Part shown: piece by piece, positions 7,846-29,546 of the stretch
Layout: each line of letters starts with the position of its first letter
Position numbering within the stretch: position 1 is the first letter of the stretch
Assembly (NCBI GenBank): GCA_005778835.1
Contig: SXMG01000007.1
Span: 1-36,080 of the forward strand
DNA: 36,080 nucleotides
Reading direction: 5' to 3'
From: Actinomycetota bacterium
GTDB lineage: Bacteria > Actinomycetota > Actinomycetes > Actinomycetales > Microbacteriaceae
The notes under the pieces: model-generated
The model's database searches: none
What the model was told of the DNA's origin: nothing
The model's input: the letters and a program-made list of their open reading frames with translations, nothing else
Position numbers and translations under genes: made by a program

Positions 7846-9036
7846 GTGAGCGATGCCGAGGCAGTGCACCCTGCGGCCGATGACGTCGTCGACCTGCTGG
7901 CGCAGCTGGTCGCCATCGACTCGGTCAACAGCGACCTCGTGGCCGGCGCAGCGGGCGAATCCGCGATCGCCGACTGGTGCGCCGAGTGGCTGGCCGACCG
8001 CGGGTTCGAGGTGACGCGCCTCGAGGGCCGCCCCGGGCATCCCTCGATCGTCGCGATCGCGCGTGCCCCCGGCGCCGGCCCCGTGCTCATGCTCAACGGG
8101 CATCTCGACACCGTGGGTGTCGAGGGCTACGACGGCGACCGGTTCTCGGGGCGCATCGACGACGGGCGCCTGCACGGTCGAGGGTCGTTCGACACCAAGA
8201 GCGGCGTCGCGGCGGCCATGGTCGCGGCAGCGCGCGCCCATGCTGAGGGCGCACTGCGGGGCGACCTCGTGCTGACTCTCGTCGCCGACGAGGAGTTCGG
8301 CAGCACCGGCACCGTCGAGACCCTCGCCCACCTGGCCGAGGCAGGCATCGTGCCGAGCGCTGCCATCGTGCTCGAGCCCTCGGCCCTCGAGCTGACCGTG
8401 GCGCACCGCGGCTTCGCATGGTTCGAGGTCGAGTTCACGGGGCTCGCGGCCCACGGGTCTATGCCCGAGCAGGGAGTCGACGCCATTGCGGCCGCTGCGG
8501 CCCTTCTGCGGGACCTCGACGACCTTCGCCAGCGGCTGCAGCAGTCTGAGCCGCATGCACTGCTCGGGCACGGCACGGTGCGGGTGTCGACCATCGAGGG
8601 CGGGACTGACGCCGCGACGGTCGCCGATCGCTGCGTGCTCACCGTCGAGCGCCGCACGCTGCCCGACGACGATCTCGATGAGGTCGAGAGCCAGCTGCGC
8701 GAGCTCGTCGAGCGCGCTGCGAGCACGGTGCCCGGCGCCCGCGGAGTGGTCCACCGCCTCGTCGCGCGAGCGGCCTTCGCTGCCGACCCGACGAGTGCGA
8801 TCGTGACGACGCTCGCCGCACAGGTCGAGAAGGTGCTCGGCAGACCCGCGCGCCTGCGCGGCGAGCCGTTCTGGACCGATGCCCGGCTCGTGCACGAGGC
8901 GGGCATCGCGTGCGTCGTCATCGGTGCCGATGGCGGGGGAGCGCATGCCGACACCGAGTGGGCCGACTGCGCGTCGGTGCGTGCGCTCGAAGCGGTGCTG
9001 CACGGTGTGATGACATCGAGCGGGGTCTCCCCCTGA
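7846..9036 (+). CDS. M20-family metallopeptidase/deacylase (ArgE/DapE/CPG2-like)
   Basis: A 396-residue dinuclear zinc hydrolase of the M20 family, which cleaves amide bonds of N-acyl amino acids or small peptides in the cytoplasm. Metal- and base-bearing motifs are in order: NGHLDTVG (His and Asp), RGSFDTKSGVAAAM (bridging Asp), DEEFGSTGT (catalytic Glu pair), EPSALELTVAHRGFAWFEVEFTG leading into the dimerisation domain, and a late GADGGGAHADTEW containing the last metal His. The GTG at 7846 is the best start, giving a normal N terminus (DDVVDLLAQLVAIDSVN). The substrate is not predictable; neither arginine nor lysine biosynthesis genes are nearby. Confidence 0.87.
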   Translation: MSDAEAVHPAADDVVDLLAQLVAIDSVNSDLVAGAAGESAIADWCAEWLADRGFEVTRLEGRPGHPSIVAIARAPGAGPVLMLNGHLDTVGVEGYDGDRFSGRIDDGRLHGRGSFDTKSGVAAAMVAAARAHAEGALRGDLVLTLVADEEFGSTGTVETLAHLAEAGIVPSAAIVLEPSALELTVAHRGFAWFEVEFTGLAAHGSMPEQGVDAIAAAAALLRDLDDLRQRLQQSEPHALLGHGTVRVSTIEGGTDAATVADRCVLTVERRTLPDDDLDEVESQLRELVERAASTVPGARGVVHRLVARAAFAADPTSAIVTTLAAQVEKVLGRPARLRGEPFWTDARLVHEAGIACVVIGADGGGAHADTEWADCASVRALEAVLHGVMTSSGVSP

Positions 9037-21986: not shown

Positions 21987-22643
21987 TCAGTGATCGGCGC
22001 TGTCGTGATCGTGTTTCGGAATGAAGCGACGAGACGCGTTCAAGTGAGAATCCAGCTCGGACTGCAGAGTGGGCGAGTCACCCTGGCGAAGCGCCTCGAG
22101 AAGCAGTGCGTGCTTGTGAACCACCGATTCGAGGTCTTCATCAACGGCATTGGTGACTTCGAGAATCATGCGGATGGAAGGTTCCAGCAGCTCCCACAGC
22201 GCGATGAGTCGATGCATGCCCACCGATCGGACGACGGAACCGTGGAAGTCGACGTCCGCGGCGGCAACGGCCGAGGGATCGTGGCGTGCCGCGGCGTCTC
22301 TCATTCTCGACAGCGCTTCTTCGGCCGCGGAGATGTCGAGCGCGGGCGTCGAGGCACCCTCCATCCACGCGAGCCCTTCGAGCGCGCGTCGAACGGCGTA
22401 GATCTCGTCGATATCTGAATCGGTGATGCCGATCACGGTGTAGGAACGGCCGCCCCGCTCGACGAGCCGCTCGGTCTCGAGCTGCTTGAGCGCGTCTCGT
22501 ATCGGTCCGCGGCTGACAGAGAATCGCTCGGCGAGCACTTCTTCACGAATGGCGGTGTCGGTACCCATAGCGCCCGTGATGATGTCTCGTCGCAACACCG
22601 CAGCGATCTGCTCGCCGAGCGGAAGCGGTCGAACGATGTCCAC
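21987..22643 (-). CDS. GntR-family (FadR/FCD) transcriptional regulator of the tct operon
   Basis: A 218-residue regulator with an N-terminal winged helix (about 8-72: IREEVLAERFSVSRGPIRDALKQLETERLVE) and a C-terminal FCD ligand domain. FCD metal-site residues appear in VDFHGSVV, HKHALLLEAL and LDSHL, so a bound metal and a carboxylate effector are likely. It is the last gene of the six-gene catabolic operon, 23 nt after the kinase stop, and starts at GTG with its own -10 box. The natural operator is the 28-bp palindrome at 28404-28431, over the operon promoter. The expected mode is repression relieved by an imported acid or an intermediate (inference). Confidence 0.93.
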   Translation of the reverse strand: MDIVRPLPLGEQIAAVLRRDIITGAMGTDTAIREEVLAERFSVSRGPIRDALKQLETERLVERGGRSYTVIGITDSDIDEIYAVRRALEGLAWMEGASTPALDISAAEEALSRMRDAAARHDPSAVAAADVDFHGSVVRSVGMHRLIALWELLEPSIRMILEVTNAVDEDLESVVHKHALLLEALRQGDSPTLQSELDSHLNASRRFIPKHDHDSADH

Positions 22644-22659
22644 AGTCCCAGCTTACTGT
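22642..22659 (-). promoter_or_regulatory. Internal promoter and inverted repeat at the gntR start
   Basis: On the minus strand TAAGCT (22655-22650) is followed by GGGACT and the GTG at 22643, the leaderless pattern. Arms ACAGT (22659-22655) and ACTGT (22646-22642) enclose it with an 8-nt spacer. ACAGTAA also occurs in the main operator, so autoregulation is possible. Confidence 0.4.
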
Positions 22660-22666
22660 CGCGCCG

Positions 22667-24409
<1,743 letters not shown>

Positions 24410-24440
24410 GGGGAGACCTCCGATTCGCGGGTCGAGTGAT

Positions 24441-25310
24441 TCAGACGCGAAGCGCGAGCTCGATCAGCTCGCGCTCATCGTCTGCGGGGACAGGTTCGGT
24501 AGCGGTTCGGACGTGCCCGACCGCGATGCCTCGCGCTGTGATCGCTGCCTTGAGATGGCCGACATTGCCCGCTCGAACGGCGGCGACAGCGCGCGAAACG
24601 ATCCTCTCGGCGACGACGATGCCATCGCGATCACCAGTCTTGAGCGCCTCCCGCAGTCGCACGAACGGTTCCGGGAACGCTGATGAGACCCCCGAGACGA
24701 TTCCCGCACCGCCCTGCTCGAGCAACCAGCGGAGGCTGGTGTCGTTACCCGAGTACAGCCGGAATCCCTCGGGTGCATGGCGGAGGAACGCCTGCACTGA
24801 GCTGTCGCTCTCACCGCTGATCTTGACTCCCGCGACCCCGATGTCGGCCAACCGGGGGAGAAGAGAGGGCGGCGACACCGTCGTGGTGCGTTGCCGGAAC
24901 AGGTAAGCGTAGACCTCCGCTCCCTCGCTTGCCTCGACGATGCGTCGGTAATAGTCGAGGATCTGCTCCGGCGGTGCCGAGTGGAAGAAGGGGGTCACAG
25001 CGGCGAGGCGCTCCGCCCCCGCGGCTCGGGCTTTCCGCGTGAGGCGCTCTGCTTGGTAGGCACTTGGCGCGCCAACGTGCGCGAAGACTCGGGAGCTGCC
25101 GAAGACGTCGAGCGCGATCGCGAATGTCTCGATCCTCTCGTCATCGTCGAGGGCCGTGAATTCCCCGGTCGTGCCAGCGACGAAGACGGCATCAATCCCT
25201 GCGCCATCGAGGCGAGTGAGCAGCGCGGCGAAAGCCGATGCCGAGAATCGCTCCTCGTCATCGAACGGGGTCGGCACGGCGGAGATCAGCACGGGTCGTG
25301 CGGAAGTCAT
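24441..25310 (-). CDS. DapA-superfamily (DHDPS/NAL) lyase or aldolase
   Basis: A 289-residue (beta/alpha)8 protein of the dihydrodipicolinate synthase/N-acetylneuraminate lyase family. These enzymes form a Schiff base with pyruvate or a 2-keto acid. Lys163 in GVKISGES is the Schiff-base lysine. GTTGE (Thr47-Thr48), Tyr136 and Arg141 match DapA Thr44, Tyr133 and Arg138. The PYY motif, whose second Tyr is DapA Tyr107, is PFF here (Phe108-Phe109). With no lysine-pathway gene nearby and a TTT transporter upstream, a catabolic 2-keto-3-deoxy acid aldolase is more likely than DapA. Its ATG overlaps the tctA stop (ATGA) and follows an AGAGGAA site. Confidence 0.9.
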   Translation of the reverse strand: MTSARPVLISAVPTPFDDEERFSASAFAALLTRLDGAGIDAVFVAGTTGEFTALDDDERIETFAIALDVFGSSRVFAHVGAPSAYQAERLTRKARAAGAERLAAVTPFFHSAPPEQILDYYRRIVEASEGAEVYAYLFRQRTTTVSPPSLLPRLADIGVAGVKISGESDSSVQAFLRHAPEGFRLYSGNDTSLRWLLEQGGAGIVSGVSSAFPEPFVRLREALKTGDRDGIVVAERIVSRAVAAVRAGNVGHLKAAITARGIAVGHVRTATEPVPADDERELIELALRV

Positions 25311-26809
25311 GAGGTTCCTCTCGGACTAGTGGTGCGTGAACGTCGTTGCTTCCATCTCCGGCGCACAGCCGGGCCCGCGAGAGCGAGAGCAGTGATGGCG
25401 AAGAGCGTGAGTGCGATAGGGCTTTCGAGAATTGTGCCGACGCCGCCGATCTCGAGGGAGCGACGCAAATTGGCTTCGGCGAGCTCGCCGAGAAGCAGTC
25501 CCAGAACAAGCGGACCCACCGGAACCTCGAACCGGCGCATCACGGTGCCGAGCACACCGAACGCGATCATGACTCCGACATCGACCAAACTGTTGTTCAC
25601 GGAGTATGTGCCGACGATGCACGCCGCGAGCACGATGGTCCACAGATACCGAGCGGGCAGGTTCAAAAGGCGGGTGACTCCGCGCAGTCGCAGCAGGCTC
25701 AGCCCCAGAGCGACGATCATGGCGATCGTCATGATGCCTGCGATGGTGAACACCAGGTCGGGGCGATTGACGAAGAGCGATGGGCCCGGCTGGATTCCCC
25801 AGATCACCAGAGAACCGATCATGACGGCCATGACGGAGTCGCCGGGTATTCCGAGCGCCAGAGTCGTCGTCACCGACGGCCCGAGCGTGGCGTTGGACGC
25901 GGTGTCGGCTGCCGTGAGTCCTTCGATCGATCCCTTGCCGAACTCCTGTGGGGTTCGTGAGGCACGCTTCGCCTGAGACCACGCGATGATGCCGCCGATA
26001 TCCCCGCCGGTAGCCGGCACTGCACCCACCACGGCCCCGACCCCGGCGCCGATCGCCATGGGTTTTCCCATCTGACGCAGTTCCGCACGATTCGGCCACC
26101 AACGCCCTAGTTGACGAACGGGCTCAGCGCCTCGATCACGCGACCGTGCGAGGTCAGCCATGATCTCCGCGACGCCGAAAAGCCCGATGATCGCGGCGAT
26201 GAACGGTATCCCGTCGGACAGCTCAAGCACTCCGAAGGTGAACCGATCGGCTCCCGTGATCGGGTCACGGCCGACCGTCGCCAGCAGGAGCCCGAGAGCT
26301 CCGGAGATGAGACCGACAATGAGGTTCGAACCCGAGATGCTGATCATCATGGCGAGCCCGAACAGCACGAGCGCGAAGGTTTCGGGGGGTCCGAACTCGA
26401 GAGCTAATCGAGAAAGGGGAATAGCTGCCGCGACCAGGATGATAAGCCCGAAGGCTGTGCCGGCCGTCGATGCGTAGGCAGAGGCGGTAAGTGCGACACC
26501 CGCCCGACCCTGTTTCGCCATCGGGTAGCCGTCGAAGGTCGTCGCGATCGAAGCAGGCGTGCCAGGCGTGTTGATCAAGATCGCCGGCACTCGGTCTCCG
26601 TAGTTGGCGCAGACGTAAATGGTGAGAAGCACGGCAAGCCCGGCGACGGGGTCAAGAGTGAGAGTGAAACTGCTGGCCAGGGCCACCGCCATGGTCGCGG
26701 TTACACCAGGGAAGGTGCCGACCAGCATGCCGATGATCGCGCCGATCGCGATACACAGCAGAACGAATGGGTCGCCGAGCGCGGCGAGGCCTTCGAACAC
26801 GGGGGTCAC
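25307..26809 (-). CDS. tctA: Tripartite tricarboxylate transporter, large membrane subunit TctA
   Basis: A 500-residue polytopic permease of the TTT family with about 12 membrane segments. The family signature is clear: GTFPGVTATMAVALASS near the N terminus and ILINTPGTPASIATTFDGYPMAKQG. GAVPATGGDIGGIIAWSQAKR and LGIPGDSVMAVMIGSLVIWGIQPG follow. TctA translocates a carboxylate together with cations, receiving it from TctC. The start is GTG at 26809, with GGGAG 7 nt upstream, overlapping the tctB stop by 4 nt (GTGA). The open frame further upstream is out of frame with tctB and is not coding. The C-terminal tail is Arg/Ser-rich. Confidence 0.95.
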   Translation of the reverse strand: MTPVFEGLAALGDPFVLLCIAIGAIIGMLVGTFPGVTATMAVALASSFTLTLDPVAGLAVLLTIYVCANYGDRVPAILINTPGTPASIATTFDGYPMAKQGRAGVALTASAYASTAGTAFGLIILVAAAIPLSRLALEFGPPETFALVLFGLAMMISISGSNLIVGLISGALGLLLATVGRDPITGADRFTFGVLELSDGIPFIAAIIGLFGVAEIMADLARSRDRGAEPVRQLGRWWPNRAELRQMGKPMAIGAGVGAVVGAVPATGGDIGGIIAWSQAKRASRTPQEFGKGSIEGLTAADTASNATLGPSVTTTLALGIPGDSVMAVMIGSLVIWGIQPGPSLFVNRPDLVFTIAGIMTIAMIVALGLSLLRLRGVTRLLNLPARYLWTIVLAACIVGTYSVNNSLVDVGVMIAFGVLGTVMRRFEVPVGPLVLGLLLGELAEANLRRSLEIGGVGTILESPIALTLFAITALALAGPAVRRRWKQRRSRTTSPRGTS

Positions 26810-27306
26810 AGCGGCACTCCCAACAGGGTGTCGAAGAAGAGAACCAGGGATGCGGTGACGACGGCGGGGAAGAGCAGGAGTCCGCGCCAGTTGCGAGCAC
26901 CGAGAAGGGCGCTCAAGCCGATCGTGTACAGGGCGGTCGCCACCAGGTAGCCCCACGATTGCCAGATGATCAAGGAGAGCAATGTTGCGCCGAGAACGGC
27001 ACTGACGCGAACGATCGACCACGACTCGTCGGGAACACCGTCGGCAGAAGCCGAGGCGGGCTCCGACGACGTGTCGACGAAGAGCGCCTTCACCATGCCC
27101 GCGAGCCCGAGCGCCACGAGCGCTGCGGCGAGCACCTGAGGCCACCACTGCGGGCTGAACGCGGTCGGGATGCTCGACTCGGGCAAGGCTGCGATCAGCC
27201 CGAAACCGGCGATGCCGAGAACGATCGCGGCGATGGCGACCCCGAGGGGCCGACGCGGGCGCGAACGCCGAGTCGACCCCTCGAAGCGTGGTGATGATGC
27301 GGTCAT
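26806..27306 (-). CDS. tctB: Tripartite tricarboxylate transporter, small membrane subunit TctB
   Basis: A 166-residue protein with four predicted helices: LGVAIAAIVLGIAGFGLIAAL, PQVLAAALVALGLAGMVKAL, VSAVLGATLLSLIIWQSWGYLVATALYTIGLSALLG and LLLFPAVVTASLVLFFDTLLG. The last contains the conserved LFFDTLLGVPLP-like ending of TctB proteins. TctB pairs with TctA in the membrane. ATG 27306 shares its A with the tctC stop (TGATG), so translation is coupled and no separate ribosome site is needed. The basic N terminus (about 25 residues, RFEGSTRRSRPRR) is probably cytoplasmic. Confidence 0.93.
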   Translation of the reverse strand: MTASSPRFEGSTRRSRPRRPLGVAIAAIVLGIAGFGLIAALPESSIPTAFSPQWWPQVLAAALVALGLAGMVKALFVDTSSEPASASADGVPDESWSIVRVSAVLGATLLSLIIWQSWGYLVATALYTIGLSALLGARNWRGLLLFPAVVTASLVLFFDTLLGVPL

Positions 27307-28274
27307 CAGGATTCGCCGAAGATCCGCTCGAATCGGGCGACCTCGGAGTCGAAGAACTCCGAGAACGCGTCTGCATCGACGAACACCGGAATGTTGCCCG
27401 AGTTCGAGATCACCTCGATGAAGGATGCGGACTGCGCGGCACCGGCGACGGCGTCGGCGAGGGCAGCTCGCACGTCGTCTGGCAGACCCGCGGGCGCGCC
27501 GATCGCTCCCCACCCGCCGATGATGACGTCGAAGCCGAGGGCTTGAGCGGTCTCGACTCCGGGAAGCGCATCGGAGGTGGTGTCGGCGAAGACTGCGAGC
27601 ACCCGCAGCGAGCCGTCTGCGGCGGGCACCGAGGTCTCTGAGATGCCGGCGACCACGGCGTCGACGTCTCCGGCGACGGCTGCCGTGACGGCGGGCGCGC
27701 CGCCGTCGAACGGAATCGGCCTGAACTCCACTCCGGCGGCCTCGCCGAGCGCAGTCGTCGTGGCGTTCCAGATCGATCCTGCGCCGGAGTTCGAGACAGT
27801 GATGGTCCCCGGTGCAGCCTCGGCTGCTGCGATCAGGTCGTCCAGCGTCTCATAGGGACTGCTCGACGGCACCGCGATCGTGGCAGGAACCGACACGATC
27901 TGCCCCAGCAGTTCGTAGTCATCGGGCTGAATGACGTACCCCTGGAGACCGAGCATGGTTGTCTCGACAGGCATGTATCCGATGGTGTAGCCATCGGGCG
28001 CTGCGCCGGCGAGATACGAGAGGCCGACCGCACCCGCCCCTCCCGTGCGGTTCTCGACGATGATCGACACACCGAGAATCGACTCCATCTCGGTCGCGAG
28101 CGCGCGAGCGGAGAGGTCGGAGGCTCCTCCGGCCGAGTACGGCACGACCAAAGTGATGTCTTGCGAGGGGTAGGCGACCTCCTCCTCAGCGTCACCGGCG
28201 GCGGGGGAGCAGCCAGCGGCGATGAGGGTGAGTCCTGCGGCAGCCGCAGTGGCCGCGAAGAGACGAGCTCTCAT
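27306..28274 (-). CDS. tctC: Tripartite tricarboxylate transporter substrate-binding lipoprotein TctC
   Basis: A 322-residue extracytoplasmic solute-binding protein. The signal peptide MRARLFAATAAAAGLTLIAA ends in an AAGC lipobox with Cys22 as the lipidation site. The mature part begins with an acidic stretch and the TctC-typical YPSQDITLVVPYSAGGASD and IIVENRTGGAGAVG. AAPDGYTIGY and a C-terminal GAPAGLPDDVRAALADAV follow. It captures a carboxylate outside the membrane and hands it to TctA/TctB. ATG 28274 is fixed by AAAGGA just upstream and by the signal peptide; an open frame extends 25 codons further. It heads the operon behind a ~140-nt leader and a palindromic operator. Confidence 0.95.
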   Translation of the reverse strand: MRARLFAATAAAAGLTLIAAGCSPAAGDAEEEVAYPSQDITLVVPYSAGGASDLSARALATEMESILGVSIIVENRTGGAGAVGLSYLAGAAPDGYTIGYMPVETTMLGLQGYVIQPDDYELLGQIVSVPATIAVPSSSPYETLDDLIAAAEAAPGTITVSNSGAGSIWNATTTALGEAAGVEFRPIPFDGGAPAVTAAVAGDVDAVVAGISETSVPAADGSLRVLAVFADTTSDALPGVETAQALGFDVIIGGWGAIGAPAGLPDDVRAALADAVAGAAQSASFIEVISNSGNIPVFVDADAFSEFFDSEVARFERIFGES

Positions 28275-28403
28275 GGTGGTCCTTTCACATCGTTGTGATT
28301 GCAGAGCATTGTGCCCTGACTCGGGTGGGTTCCCACCGAACCGGTGCATCTGGCGACGCTCGAACGGTGAGCACGAGATCGGTAGAGGTGCTTACTCACC
28401 GCT
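28275..28403 (-). promoter_or_regulatory. Structured mRNA leader of the tct operon
   Basis: From the predicted start site near 28414, about 140 nt precede tctC. Two hairpins can form: CGGTGA (28401-28396) with TCACCG (28370-28365), extended inside by GCAC/GTGC, and GGTGGG with CCCACC (28324-28337, 2-nt centre). I recognise no known riboswitch class. Confidence 0.35.
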
Positions 28404-28431
28404 CTGTGTTTTCTGTTAACAGTAAACACAG
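28404..28431. promoter_or_regulatory. 28-bp palindromic operator of the tct operon
   Basis: The 28 bp read the same on both strands except for one symmetric pair (28412 and 28423). Each half has an outer CTGTGTTT and the centre is CTGTTAACAG. It covers the predicted -10 box and start site of the tct promoter. Symmetry and position fit a GntR/FCD dimer or dimer-pair site, most likely for the regulator at 21987-22643. Confidence 0.75.
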
Positions 28432-28450
28432 ATGCCGATGCAGATGTCAA
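28421..28450 (-). promoter_or_regulatory. Promoter of the tct-aldolase-DAK-gntR operon
   Basis: Minus-strand TTGACA (28450-28445), a perfect -35 hexamer, is followed by an 18-nt spacer and TTTACT (28426-28421) as -10. A TANNNT alternative, TACTGT, lies 2 nt further. The start would fall inside the palindrome. Confidence 0.6.
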
Positions 28451-28501: not shown

Positions 28502-29470
28502 TCAGTCGTCGGCGATGAGGCGCGCGAGGGCGGCGTCGCTCACGGCACCGGCAGAGAGATCGGCGAGCCGGCCGCGCCGATAGCGCTCGAGCACGCGCGG
28601 GTCGATGTAGCTCGACCGCGCGACGGCGACCGTGTTGCGCAGCGCCTCCGAGACGGCGAGCACAGCATCCCGAATGCGGGCATCCTGCTCTCGTGCCGAC
28701 CTCGCGGGCTCCGCACGGGCGAGCGACTGCGCGGCGACGCGGCTGCCGAGCAGGGTGCGCAGGTCTTTCGCGGTGACTCCGAGCCCGGTGCTGTCGCGCA
28801 GATAGCCCGTGAGTGCTGCCGCGTGCAGGCGATGCTCGGCCGCGTCGGCCTCGCGCCACGAGGTGACGCGAGCCCCGCTACCGCGTGGAGCTCGTCGCAG
28901 GGCCACCGAGAGGTCGTCATCGGTGATCTCGGCGCGCCACCGCACGCCCGACTTCGCCGGAAAGTCGAGGCGCACCGTCGACCCGCTCACCACGACGTGA
29001 CGACGCTCGAGTGTGAGCGCCCCGATCGTTCCGCGCTCGCGGGCATAGCGCTCGTCACCGAGCCGCATGCCGGTCGCATCGATCAGTCGCACCGCGATGG
29101 CGAGCGCTCGGGCTTTGGCGTCGTCTGACCGCAGGTCGCGAGTGACCCGCGACCGCAGCGCAGTCATGGCGCTCGAGAGCTCACGCACGCGCGCGTACTT
29201 CGCCCGACCGGCCTTCGCGATCCACCGCTCGTGGTACCGGTACTGCGTGCGCCCTTCTGCGTCGACCCCTGTGGCCTGCACGTGACCGTTGGCCTCCGCG
29301 CAGATCCAGACGTCGTTCCACGCCGGCGGAATCGCGAGGGCGGCGATGCGCTCGAGCGTGTCATCGTCGACGACGCGACGACCGTGGGCGTCGTCGTACG
29401 AGAATCCGCGTCCGCGACGCTGGCGACGGATGCCCGTCCCGCCGGGCACGCTGCGTCGCAGCCTCACCAT
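28502..29470 (-). CDS. DNA topoisomerase IB (poxvirus-like)
   Basis: A protein of 322 residues (324 if begun at the GTG at 29476) of the bacterial type IB topoisomerase family, which relaxes supercoils through a 3'-phosphotyrosine bond. The N-terminal domain has GRGFSYDDAHGRRVVDDDTLERIAALAIPPAWNDVWIC and GRTQYRYHERW. Active-site residues lie in RLIDATGMRLGDERYARERGTIGALTL (Arg) and around LRDSTGLGVTAKDLRTLLGS. The catalytic Tyr, about residue 288, is in ARSSYIDPRVLERY. Length and motifs match the poxvirus-like short enzymes. No ribosome site or -10 box resolves the start. It is divergent from the SDR gene. Confidence 0.92.
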   Translation of the reverse strand: MVRLRRSVPGGTGIRRQRRGRGFSYDDAHGRRVVDDDTLERIAALAIPPAWNDVWICAEANGHVQATGVDAEGRTQYRYHERWIAKAGRAKYARVRELSSAMTALRSRVTRDLRSDDAKARALAIAVRLIDATGMRLGDERYARERGTIGALTLERRHVVVSGSTVRLDFPAKSGVRWRAEITDDDLSVALRRAPRGSGARVTSWREADAAEHRLHAAALTGYLRDSTGLGVTAKDLRTLLGSRVAAQSLARAEPARSAREQDARIRDAVLAVSEALRNTVAVARSSYIDPRVLERYRRGRLADLSAGAVSDAALARLIADD

Positions 29471-29546
29471 GCGCACGCACGCGAGTCGTGACCGCAGCCC
29501 CCCAGCATGGGCTCATCCAAGCACGCCCGGCCGCCAGCAGGCTGGA

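What the first reader, a model, noticed from the sequence alone, without database searches (positions are those of the whole stretch)
21987..28274. Compact importer-aldolase-kinase-repressor operon for an unknown (keto-)sugar acid
Seen: six minus-strand genes, tctC-tctB-tctA-aldolase-DAK-gntR. The first four are joined by 1-4 nt overlaps; gaps of 31 and 23 nt separate the last two. Known: TTT systems import carboxylates, DapA-superfamily aldolases release pyruvate from 2-keto-3-deoxy acids, and DAK-family kinases phosphorylate trioses or ketoses. Inference: if the imported acid is already a 2-keto-3-deoxy hexonate such as KDG, the four functions form a complete pathway to pyruvate and glyceraldehyde-3-phosphate without dehydrogenase or dehydratase. 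I know of no described pathway with this gene set. An alternative is a C4/C5 acid whose product is an erythrulose-type ketose.
Basis: partly seen in the sequence, partly recalled or inferred. Interest (0 to 1): 0.75.

Follow-up and report, generated by a model that had tools for sequence, protein, structure and literature searches.

The report
Sugar-acid import, cleavage and phosphorylation operon
This is a compact, probably recently acquired set of six bacterial genes that most likely lets the cell take up an unusual keto-sugar acid, split it into pyruvate and a small sugar, and phosphorylate that sugar; a like set of functions also occurs, built from distant relatives of these genes, in an unrelated bacterium, which supports a real but still unassigned pathway.

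Summary
It is more than chance. The six families form one same-strand block in four other genomes from two families. A like set from distant lineages (TctCBA, DhaK, DhaL, DapA-type lyase, DeoR-PfkB) lies in a Proteus mirabilis record; a Klebsiella plasmid pairs DhaK-DhaL-lyase with an MFS transporter. A 30-bp palindrome precedes tctC and is unique in the held genome. None of 25 congeners has the aldolase at 1e-40; one of four opened shows the empty site.

Best reading: import of a 2-keto-3-deoxy sugar acid, cleavage to pyruvate plus an aldehyde, phosphorylation of the aldehyde. The lyase keeps Lys163, Tyr136 and the GTTGE loop and lies apart from DapA, NanA and YagE. The kinase is in a GGGSGHLP clade, not the canonical DHA-kinase clade. 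A C6 substrate is plausible, not shown; the genome also has a KDPG-aldolase/PfkB pair. DAK is in only 4 of 15 TTT-aldolase operons examined. New variant of a known kind.

The parts
27306..28274 (-). tctC, substrate-binding lipoprotein of a tripartite tricarboxylate transporter (322 aa)
   Evidence: Pfam TctC 139 bits; closest solved chain 25hk, E 2.3e-42; with the TctCs of the four other DAK operons on one side of a 100/100 branch
26806..27306 (-). tctB, small membrane subunit (166 aa), 1-nt overlap with tctC
   Evidence: Pfam TctB 48 bits
25307..26809 (-). tctA, large membrane subunit (500 aa, GTG start), 4-nt overlap with tctB
   Evidence: Pfam TctA 453 bits
24441..25310 (-). DapA-superfamily pyruvate lyase (289 aa), 4-nt overlap with tctA
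   Evidence: Pfam DHDPS 126 bits; GTTGEF, H78, Y136, R141, K163; apart from DapA, NanA, YagE in the tree
22667..24409 (-). fused DhaK-DhaL kinase of the GGGSGHLP type (580 aa), 31 nt after the aldolase
   Evidence: Pfam Dak1 and Dak2; NCBIfam NF011049 541.7 bits over cut-off 492; H58, D111, H220 kept
21987..22643 (-). gntR, FCD-domain regulator (218 aa, GTG start), 23 nt after DAK
   Evidence: Pfam GntR and FCD; groups with the GntRs of L025, L026, L054, L055 (93/87, not a starred branch; window branch long)
28403..28432 (.). probable GntR operator: two 15-nt arms, 14 of 15 complementary, no spacer, about 130 nt upstream of tctC
   Evidence: 0 of 2000 base shuffles of the leader reach it; only site in the held genome up to 3 mismatches of a 20-base form; like sites in other leaders

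Best explanation
The operon takes up an anionic 2-keto-3-deoxy sugar acid and feeds it into glycolysis without a dehydrogenase or dehydratase. TctC binds the acid and TctAB carry it in. The DapA-type enzyme forms a Schiff base on Lys163 and splits it into pyruvate and an aldehyde. The DhaK-DhaL fusion spends ATP to phosphorylate that product, which pulls the reversible cleavage forward. GntR sits on the palindrome before tctC and lets go when the substrate is present. Shown by sequence: gene identities, catalytic residues, a conserved palindrome, recurrence of the set, presence in one of 26 genomes of the genus. Inferred: every reaction, the binding of GntR and the inducer. Most likely substrate: a C6 acid (a KDG or KDGal stereoisomer) giving glyceraldehyde and then glyceraldehyde 3-phosphate, about 40% on its own; the broader statement (some 2-keto-3-deoxy sugar acid) about 60-65%.
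For: Identity and overlaps. Lyase residues aligned to E. coli DapA, NanA, YagE: T47, T48, Y136, K163 kept; F51 as in YagE, H78 as in NanA. The genome has its own dapA elsewhere. Same block in L025, L026, L054, L055; their aldolases are one clade with the window's (100/99) and their TctCs share pocket-loop residues that the 12 other TctCs lack. Proteus: DeoR-PfkB, tctC, tctB, tctA, dhaK, dhaL, lyase on one strand, with TctC, TctA, DhaK and lyase 30, 33, 52 and 29% identical to the window's and the kinase and lyase on lineages of their own. Klebsiella plasmid: DhaK, DhaL, DHDPS-family protein, MFS transporter in a row; the MFS matches the D-galactonate transporter model below its cut-off (303 of 395 bits) and a YhcH/YjgK/YiaL gene lies beyond the regulator. 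Other relatives of the lyase stand beside an enolase-superfamily gene (L056) or sialidase-like genes (L060 tested; Pantoea), as expected for keto-deoxy or ulosonic acids. Kinase residues kept. One operator. Block present or absent as a whole.
Against: No call identifies the substrate. DAK is in the operon at only 4 of 15 TTT-aldolase places, so the aldolase can do without it. HLP-type DAKs also stand in ABC-transporter sugar clusters without an aldolase relative (9 of 13 in the order survey), so their substrate may be imported directly. The KDPG-aldolase/PfkB pair makes D-KDG partly redundant. The closest solved TctC binds alginate oligosaccharides, but it is also the best hit of a DAK-less TctC and of the Proteus TctC and not of the L054 TctC, so it is not diagnostic; 2 of the 11 contact positions named in PMC13390454 are identical (mapped by hand). 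A common origin of the Proteus and actinobacterial sets followed by long divergence is not excluded.
Confidence: 0.6

Rival explanations
1. The acid is a longer ulosonic acid (C7 to C9, Kdo- or Kdn-like, or a glycoside of one). The lyase releases a tetrose, pentose or hexose, an unlinked isomerase makes the ketose, and the kinase phosphorylates that.
For: DAK-less relatives carry a sialidase-like gene between tctA and aldolase (L060: BNR_2; L059 and L061 by eye) or FGGY-kinase and fucose-isomerase-like genes after it (L041, by eye and Pfam below cut-off; as annotated in Deinococcus); Pantoea has lyase, exo-alpha-sialidase and YhcH together; PfkB genes follow DAK in L054 and L055 and PfkB is fused to DeoR in Proteus.
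Against: No isomerase, FGGY or sialidase gene was seen by eye in the gene lists of the four other DAK operons; TctC and aldolase loop residues differ between DAK and DAK-less operons, so their substrates probably differ.
Confidence: 0.2
2. DAK is a passenger: it phosphorylates dihydroxyacetone or another ketose from elsewhere, and only transporter plus aldolase form the pathway.
For: DAK was not found in the stretch fetched at 10 of 15 TTT-aldolase places; the window DAK is closest (66-67% over 340 columns) to DAKs of ribulokinase-ABC clusters L124 and L125.
Against: DAK and a DapA-type lyase are neighbours in several arrangements (L025, L026, L054, L055, L057, L129, Klebsiella, Proteus); the genome has a second DhaK that falls in the clade of E. 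coli DhaK.
Confidence: 0.12
3. The enzyme is a dehydratase or decarboxylase of the KdgD type acting on an aldarate-derived acid, and DAK serves a side product.
For: TTTs are reported to carry aldarate and D-glucarate (PMC13390454, section 8); Arg141 matches DapA Arg138.
Against: The KdgD model scores 46 bits against 97 for dapA and 92 for the archaeal KDG aldolase model, all far below their cut-offs; no semialdehyde dehydrogenase in the operon.
Confidence: 0.1
4. One reading: a C4 or C5 acid whose product is an erythrulose-type ketose.
For: Fused DAKs of another clade (GGGSGHYP) sit beside RpiB-like genes (L094, L097, named by eye), as expected for erythrulose kinases (recalled), so the family does reach C4 ketoses.
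Against: The window DAK is in a different clade and no RpiB-like gene is in the operon; a pyruvate lyase gives an aldehyde.
Confidence: 0.06

Closest known systems
Non-phosphorylating KDGal/KDG routes (fungal L-KDGal aldolase path; KDG aldolase of Sulfolobus)
   Same: An aldolase splits an unphosphorylated 2-keto-3-deoxy hexonate into pyruvate and glyceraldehyde (passages of PMC11219438). That these aldolases are of the DapA superfamily is recalled for the fungal enzyme.
   Different: There the acid is made inside the cell and fungal L-glyceraldehyde is reduced to glycerol; here an importer and an ATP kinase flank the lyase. The archaeal KDG aldolase model is far from met.
E. coli yag cluster (yagE, yagF, yagG)
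   Same: Lyase beside a sugar-acid transporter gene.
   Different: Has a dehydratase, no kinase in the stretch shown, another transporter; YagE lies outside the window's clade.
TTT of Vibrio sp. C42 for alginate oligosaccharides (PDB 25HK, PMC13390454)
   Same: A TTT in a sugar-acid locus that also has gntR genes (abstract, sections 8, 24, 27 and passages seen).
   Different: The route there is KdgF, DehR, KdgK, Eda; no DapA-type lyase or DAK in the passages seen; 2 of 11 contact residues shared.
Human triokinase TKFC and DHA kinases
   Same: DhaK-DhaL architecture and covalent His; TKFC phosphorylates D-glyceraldehyde and DHA (passages of PMC6429413).
   Different: Window kinase has GGGSGHLP where E. 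coli DhaK has GGGSGHEP and is in another clade; TKFC itself was not in the trees.
Sialic acid nan operon of E. coli
   Same: Importer, lyase, kinase and regulator genes together (that NanR is an FCD-type GntR protein is recalled); H78 as in NanA.
   Different: NanA E192 and S208 are T191 and G207 here; it has an epimerase gene and other transporter and kinase families.

Membership tests
Tripartite tricarboxylate transporter (TTT) | TctC, TctB and TctA together | tested here: met
   all three over Pfam cut-offs, overlapping genes
DapA superfamily class I lyase | Schiff-base Lys, catalytic Tyr, GTTGE pyruvate loop | tested here: met
   K163, Y136, T47, T48 aligned with E. coli DapA K161, Y133, T44, T45; DapA Y107 is F109 here
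DHDPS (true DapA) | NCBIfam equivalog cut-off and clade with DapA | tested here: not met
   97.3 bits against 206.15; separate in the tree; genome has its own dapA
N-acetylneuraminate lyase | contacts E192 and S208 of NanA (recalled as contacts); equivalog cut-off | tested here: not met
   T191 and G207; 57.4 bits against 382
Archaeal KDG/KDPG aldolase | NF040954 cut-off | tested here: not met
   92 bits against 390
2-keto-3-deoxy acid aldolase activity | releases pyruvate from a keto-deoxy acid | not testable with these tools
   needs an enzyme assay
DAK kinase family (PRK14479 type) | Dak1 and Dak2, catalytic His/Asp/His | tested here: met
   541.7 bits over cut-off 492; H58, D111, H220
Canonical dihydroxyacetone kinase clade | GGGSGHEP motif and clade with E. 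coli DhaK | tested here: not met
   GGGSGHLP; outside the E. coli DhaK clade, whose support is 100/100; glycerone kinase model 330.8 bits against 574.95
FCD-type GntR regulator | GntR HTH and FCD domain | tested here: met
GntR regulation of this operon | conserved operator at the operon head, bound by GntR | tested here: inconclusive
   core matched at 10 or more of 12 bases in 15 of 19 chosen leaders, but the core was read off some of the same leaders, and binding is untested

The most novel reading that the evidence does not exclude
A bacterial pathway of its own kind for free 2-keto-3-deoxy sugar acids: dedicated uptake, unphosphorylated cleavage, and phosphorylation of the released aldehyde by a so far unassigned DAK subfamily (GGGSGHLP). 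It was assembled at least twice, in the window's phylum and in Proteus, from different transporter, aldolase and kinase lineages and different regulators.
Probability: 0.45. Interest if true: 0.75.

Novelty: new variant of a known kind. Interest (0 to 1): 0.58.

Why it matters
A 2024 review says that KDG and KDGal appear solely as intermediates in the fungal and bacterial pathways it covers, that external acid cannot induce the transport systems (E. coli can use external L-KDGal if galacturonate induces uptake), and that bacterial L-KDGal catabolism is still to be worked out (passages of PMC11219438). An operon that looks built to import such an acid and use it directly would suggest that these acids are also found free outside cells. 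It would point to a function for a DAK subfamily now named dihydroxyacetone kinase in records and for a DapA subfamily without an assigned substrate.

Tried and rejected
Plain DHDPS or sialic-acid lyase: rejected by model scores, residues and tree. Plain DHA kinase: less likely, since the genome's other DhaK falls with E. coli DhaK and the window's does not. Plasmid search with the aldolase: no match at 1e-25. Promoter and terminator scans: no promoter-like site before tctC, one terminator-like site inside gntR. No structure was predicted: the tool admits the window's own proteins and loci of certain tools, and most of my homologues came from the genome search. A search for Kdo hydrolase or Kdo aldolase gave 29 papers, 20 listed; none was opened. 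The erythrulose-kinase paper search was swamped by the word Dhaka. In the DAK trees some rows fell out because of the search pattern (the own second DhaK L098, and L091, L093, L096, L100); L098 was put back. The HLP rows form one clade with 90/82 support and 96/83, but not.
Full report
OBSERVATION. Pfam gives TctC, TctB, TctA, DHDPS, Dak1 and Dak2, GntR and FCD, each over its cut-off. The genome (G000, 2.47 Mb, 168 contigs, 81% complete) has a separate dapA on contig 9 and a separate DhaK on contig 51, whose motif is GGGSGHEP (L098) and which falls with E. coli DhaK.

NEIGHBOURHOOD SURVEY, ALDOLASE FIRST. In a sample of the family, 19 of 298 other genomes had a match at 1e-30 (20 places); I fetched all 20. 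Nine of 20 have tctA beside the aldolase (L025, L026, L030, L032, L033, L034, L039, L041, L043). Two of those have the whole six-family block (L025, L026). L043 has a DAK 2.4 kb before its gntR-TTT-aldolase row, with an HpaI-type aldolase gene between. In a sample of the order, 9 of 395 others matched at 1e-48, all fetched: six of nine have the TTT (L054, L055, L059-L062), two of them the whole block (L054, L055). In a sample of the phylum 0 of 395 others matched at 1e-48. In the family of G612, 3 of 60 matched; two were already known and the third (L150) was not examined. In sum the TTT is beside the aldolase at 15 of 29 places; DAK is in that operon at 4 of 15 and near at 1 more. L056 and L059 are cut short by their contigs.

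NEIGHBOURHOOD SURVEY, KINASE FIRST. In a sample of the order 13 of 395 other genomes had a DAK match at 1e-112. I looked at all 13 (3 fetched, 10). Four of 13 have an aldolase relative beside the DAK (L054, L055, L057, L129); in L129 DhaK-DhaL stands convergent to gntR-tctCBA-aldolase. In the other nine no aldolase relative was found in the stretch fetched; all nine have sugar ABC-transporter genes by eye, and L124 has a ribulokinase gene by NCBIfam. So the kinase clade has a wider life than this pathway.

THE SET ELSEWHERE. A plasmid search with the DAK gave 22 records; I opened 5 of 22. One of the five, a Klebsiella michiganensis plasmid, has LacI on one strand and DhaK, DhaL, DHDPS-family protein and an MFS transporter in a row on the other, with a YhcH/YjgK/YiaL gene beyond LacI. 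The MFS matches the D-galactonate transporter model with 303 bits, below its cut-off of 395. The other four have no DHDPS-family gene listed in the stretch shown. Searching with the Klebsiella lyase gave 25 records, the Klebsiella one among them; I opened 3 more. The Proteus mirabilis record (4.08 Mb, called a plasmid, no annotation in this stretch) holds on one strand: DeoR-PfkB fusion, tctC, tctB, tctA, DhaK (GGGSGHLP), DhaL, DHDPS-family lyase, with gaps of -10, 30, 18, 132, -13 and 23 nt. Proteus TctC, TctA, DhaK and lyase are 30, 33, 52 and 29% identical to the window's; its DhaK is a long branch of its own inside the HLP clade, and its TctC lies far from the others. Its lyase pairs with the Klebsiella one (100/100), outside the actinobacterial group. 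Separate assembly is therefore likely but not proven; old common descent with divergence remains possible. The other two opened were Deinococcus deserti (GntR, ABC transporter, lyase, ribokinase, fucose isomerase, FGGY kinase, as annotated) and Pantoea ananatis (lyase, sodium symporter, exo-alpha-sialidase, YhcH, SDR). These point to keto-deoxy or ulosonic acids as substrates of the wider lyase group, with different ways of dealing with the released sugar. Neither has a DAK in the stretch shown.

ALDOLASE. Against E. coli DapA, NanA and YagE the window enzyme keeps T47, T48, Y136 and K163; F51 is shared with YagE, H78-V79-G80 with NanA, R141 with DapA; NanA E192 and S208 are T191 and G207; Y107 of DapA is F109 here. 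The window enzyme and its 29 relatives form one side of a 100/98 branch against DapA, NanA, YagE and the own DapA; the five from TTT+DAK operons form one clade (100/99) with residues that the 11 TTT-without-DAK rows lack, among them T144, S146, D169, S192 and W195. No NCBIfam equivalog is met by the window protein; all 15 aligned relatives match the same seven models (where cut-offs are shown only for the window protein).

KINASE. H58, D111 and H220 match E. coli DhaK H56, D109 and H218; K104 of E. coli is G106 here. Three motif classes were seen: GGGSGHEP (with E. coli DhaK), GGGSGHYP (fused, some beside RpiB-like genes named by eye) and GGGSGHLP. In the largest tree (34 rows) the HYP rows (100/100), the HEP rows (100/100) and the HLP rows with one HMP row (96/83) are three groups; the HLP group had 90/82 and was unresolved. 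The window kinase lies in a set of eight (99/96) with the other operon DAKs, L043 and the two from ribulokinase clusters, and is closest to the latter, so exchange of the DAK gene is possible.

TRANSPORTER. TctCs of the five DAK operons are one side of a 100/100 branch and share PYxAGGASD, VPATIA, GISE and IGGWGA where the 12 others have QAxxGGGSD, PGV or PGT, GxGE and FGxWGG. With Proteus added, its TctC falls on the side of the five. Loop residues and DAK thus change together, which suggests another substrate in DAK operons than in DAK-less ones; since the five are one lineage, this is one change, not five. The closest solved chain, 25HK, is the alginate-oligosaccharide receptor of Vibrio sp. 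C42, but it is also the best hit for a DAK-less and the Proteus TctC, while L054 has 4x9t first.

REGULATION. A palindrome with 15-nt arms (14 of 15 complementary) lies at 28403-28432; 0 of 2000 base shuffles of the 227-bp leader reach it, though one other palindrome of that strength exists in the window, near 8892. The core ACTGTTWACAGT is matched at 10 or more of 12 bases in 15 of 19 chosen leaders, 22 sites against 0.2 expected from base shuffles; misses are L039, L041, L032 and the L043 DAK leader; leaders of some other loci were not looked at. The core was read off some of these leaders, so they are not independent, and none was found in the Proteus leader. In the held part of the genome the 20-base form occurs only here up to 3 mismatches. 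In the relatives the site is before gntR, in the window before tctC, in line with gntR having moved to the end.

ORIGIN. 0 of 25 other genomes of the genus have the aldolase at 1e-40, 19 of the 26 searched being at least 90% complete. I opened the flanking region in 4 of 25. In G1073 (L148) the glucose-6-phosphate dehydrogenase gene and the gene next to the operon (window 28502-29476, which I call topoisomerase IB by recall; NCBIfam had no hit) are 56 bp apart, against 6.5 kb in the window; in the other three the dehydrogenase gene is next to the SDR gene. Third-position GC is 0.73-0.82 in the six operon genes and 0.83-0.93 in nine flanking genes. The block most likely arrived as a unit; loss from all the others is less likely.

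WHAT IT PROBABLY DOES. See the best explanation. The KDPG aldolase and PfkB on contig 36 suggest that the cell can also use phosphorylated KDG, so a stereoisomer that this pair does not handle, or another chain length, is a fair guess. Function class likely, substrate open.

LITERATURE. Seen: PMC13390454 (abstract, sections 8, 24, 27 and passages), PMC11219438 and PMC6429413 (passages only). Other papers were seen in search listings only. Absence from print rests, in open-licence PMC papers only.

Noticed in passing
L059:3781-4881, L060:10440-11264, L061:8622-9725: Sialidase-like gene between tctA and the aldolase in three DAK-less operons (L060 is BNR_2 by Pfam, weakly like solved sialidases; the other two by eye); no obvious signal peptide by eye, which hints at import of a glycoside.
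   Followed up: partly
L158:5965-11071 (Deinococcus deserti plasmid 3); L041:5402-9647: Lyase with fucose-isomerase-like (Pfam below cut-off in both) and FGGY kinase genes, plus ribokinase in Deinococcus: would fit a Kdo-like acid giving D-arabinose, then D-ribulose.
   Followed up: no
L156:1010-2323 (Proteus mirabilis): A DeoR DNA-binding domain fused to a PfkB sugar kinase heads the TTT-DhaKL-lyase row.
   Followed up: partly
L151:391-9660 (Caballeronia plasmid); L157:691-7818 (E. coli plasmid): HMP- or HLP-type DhaK-DhaL near class II aldolase genes, with mtnK-mtnA or a galactitol-type PTS: the kinase class also goes with aldolases of another family.
   Followed up: partly
L094, L097: GGGSGHYP-type fused DAKs beside RpiB-like genes (named by eye), apart from both other DAK groups.
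   Followed up: partly
L104:7545-9160 (own genome, contig 36): KDPG aldolase gene overlapping a PfkB kinase gene, with an enolase-superfamily gene and an SDR gene further on in the fetched stretch (the last two named by eye).
   Followed up: partly
window 8878-8907: Another 30-base palindrome (14 of 15 pairs), GC-rich, inside an open reading frame, unrelated to the operon.
   Followed up: no
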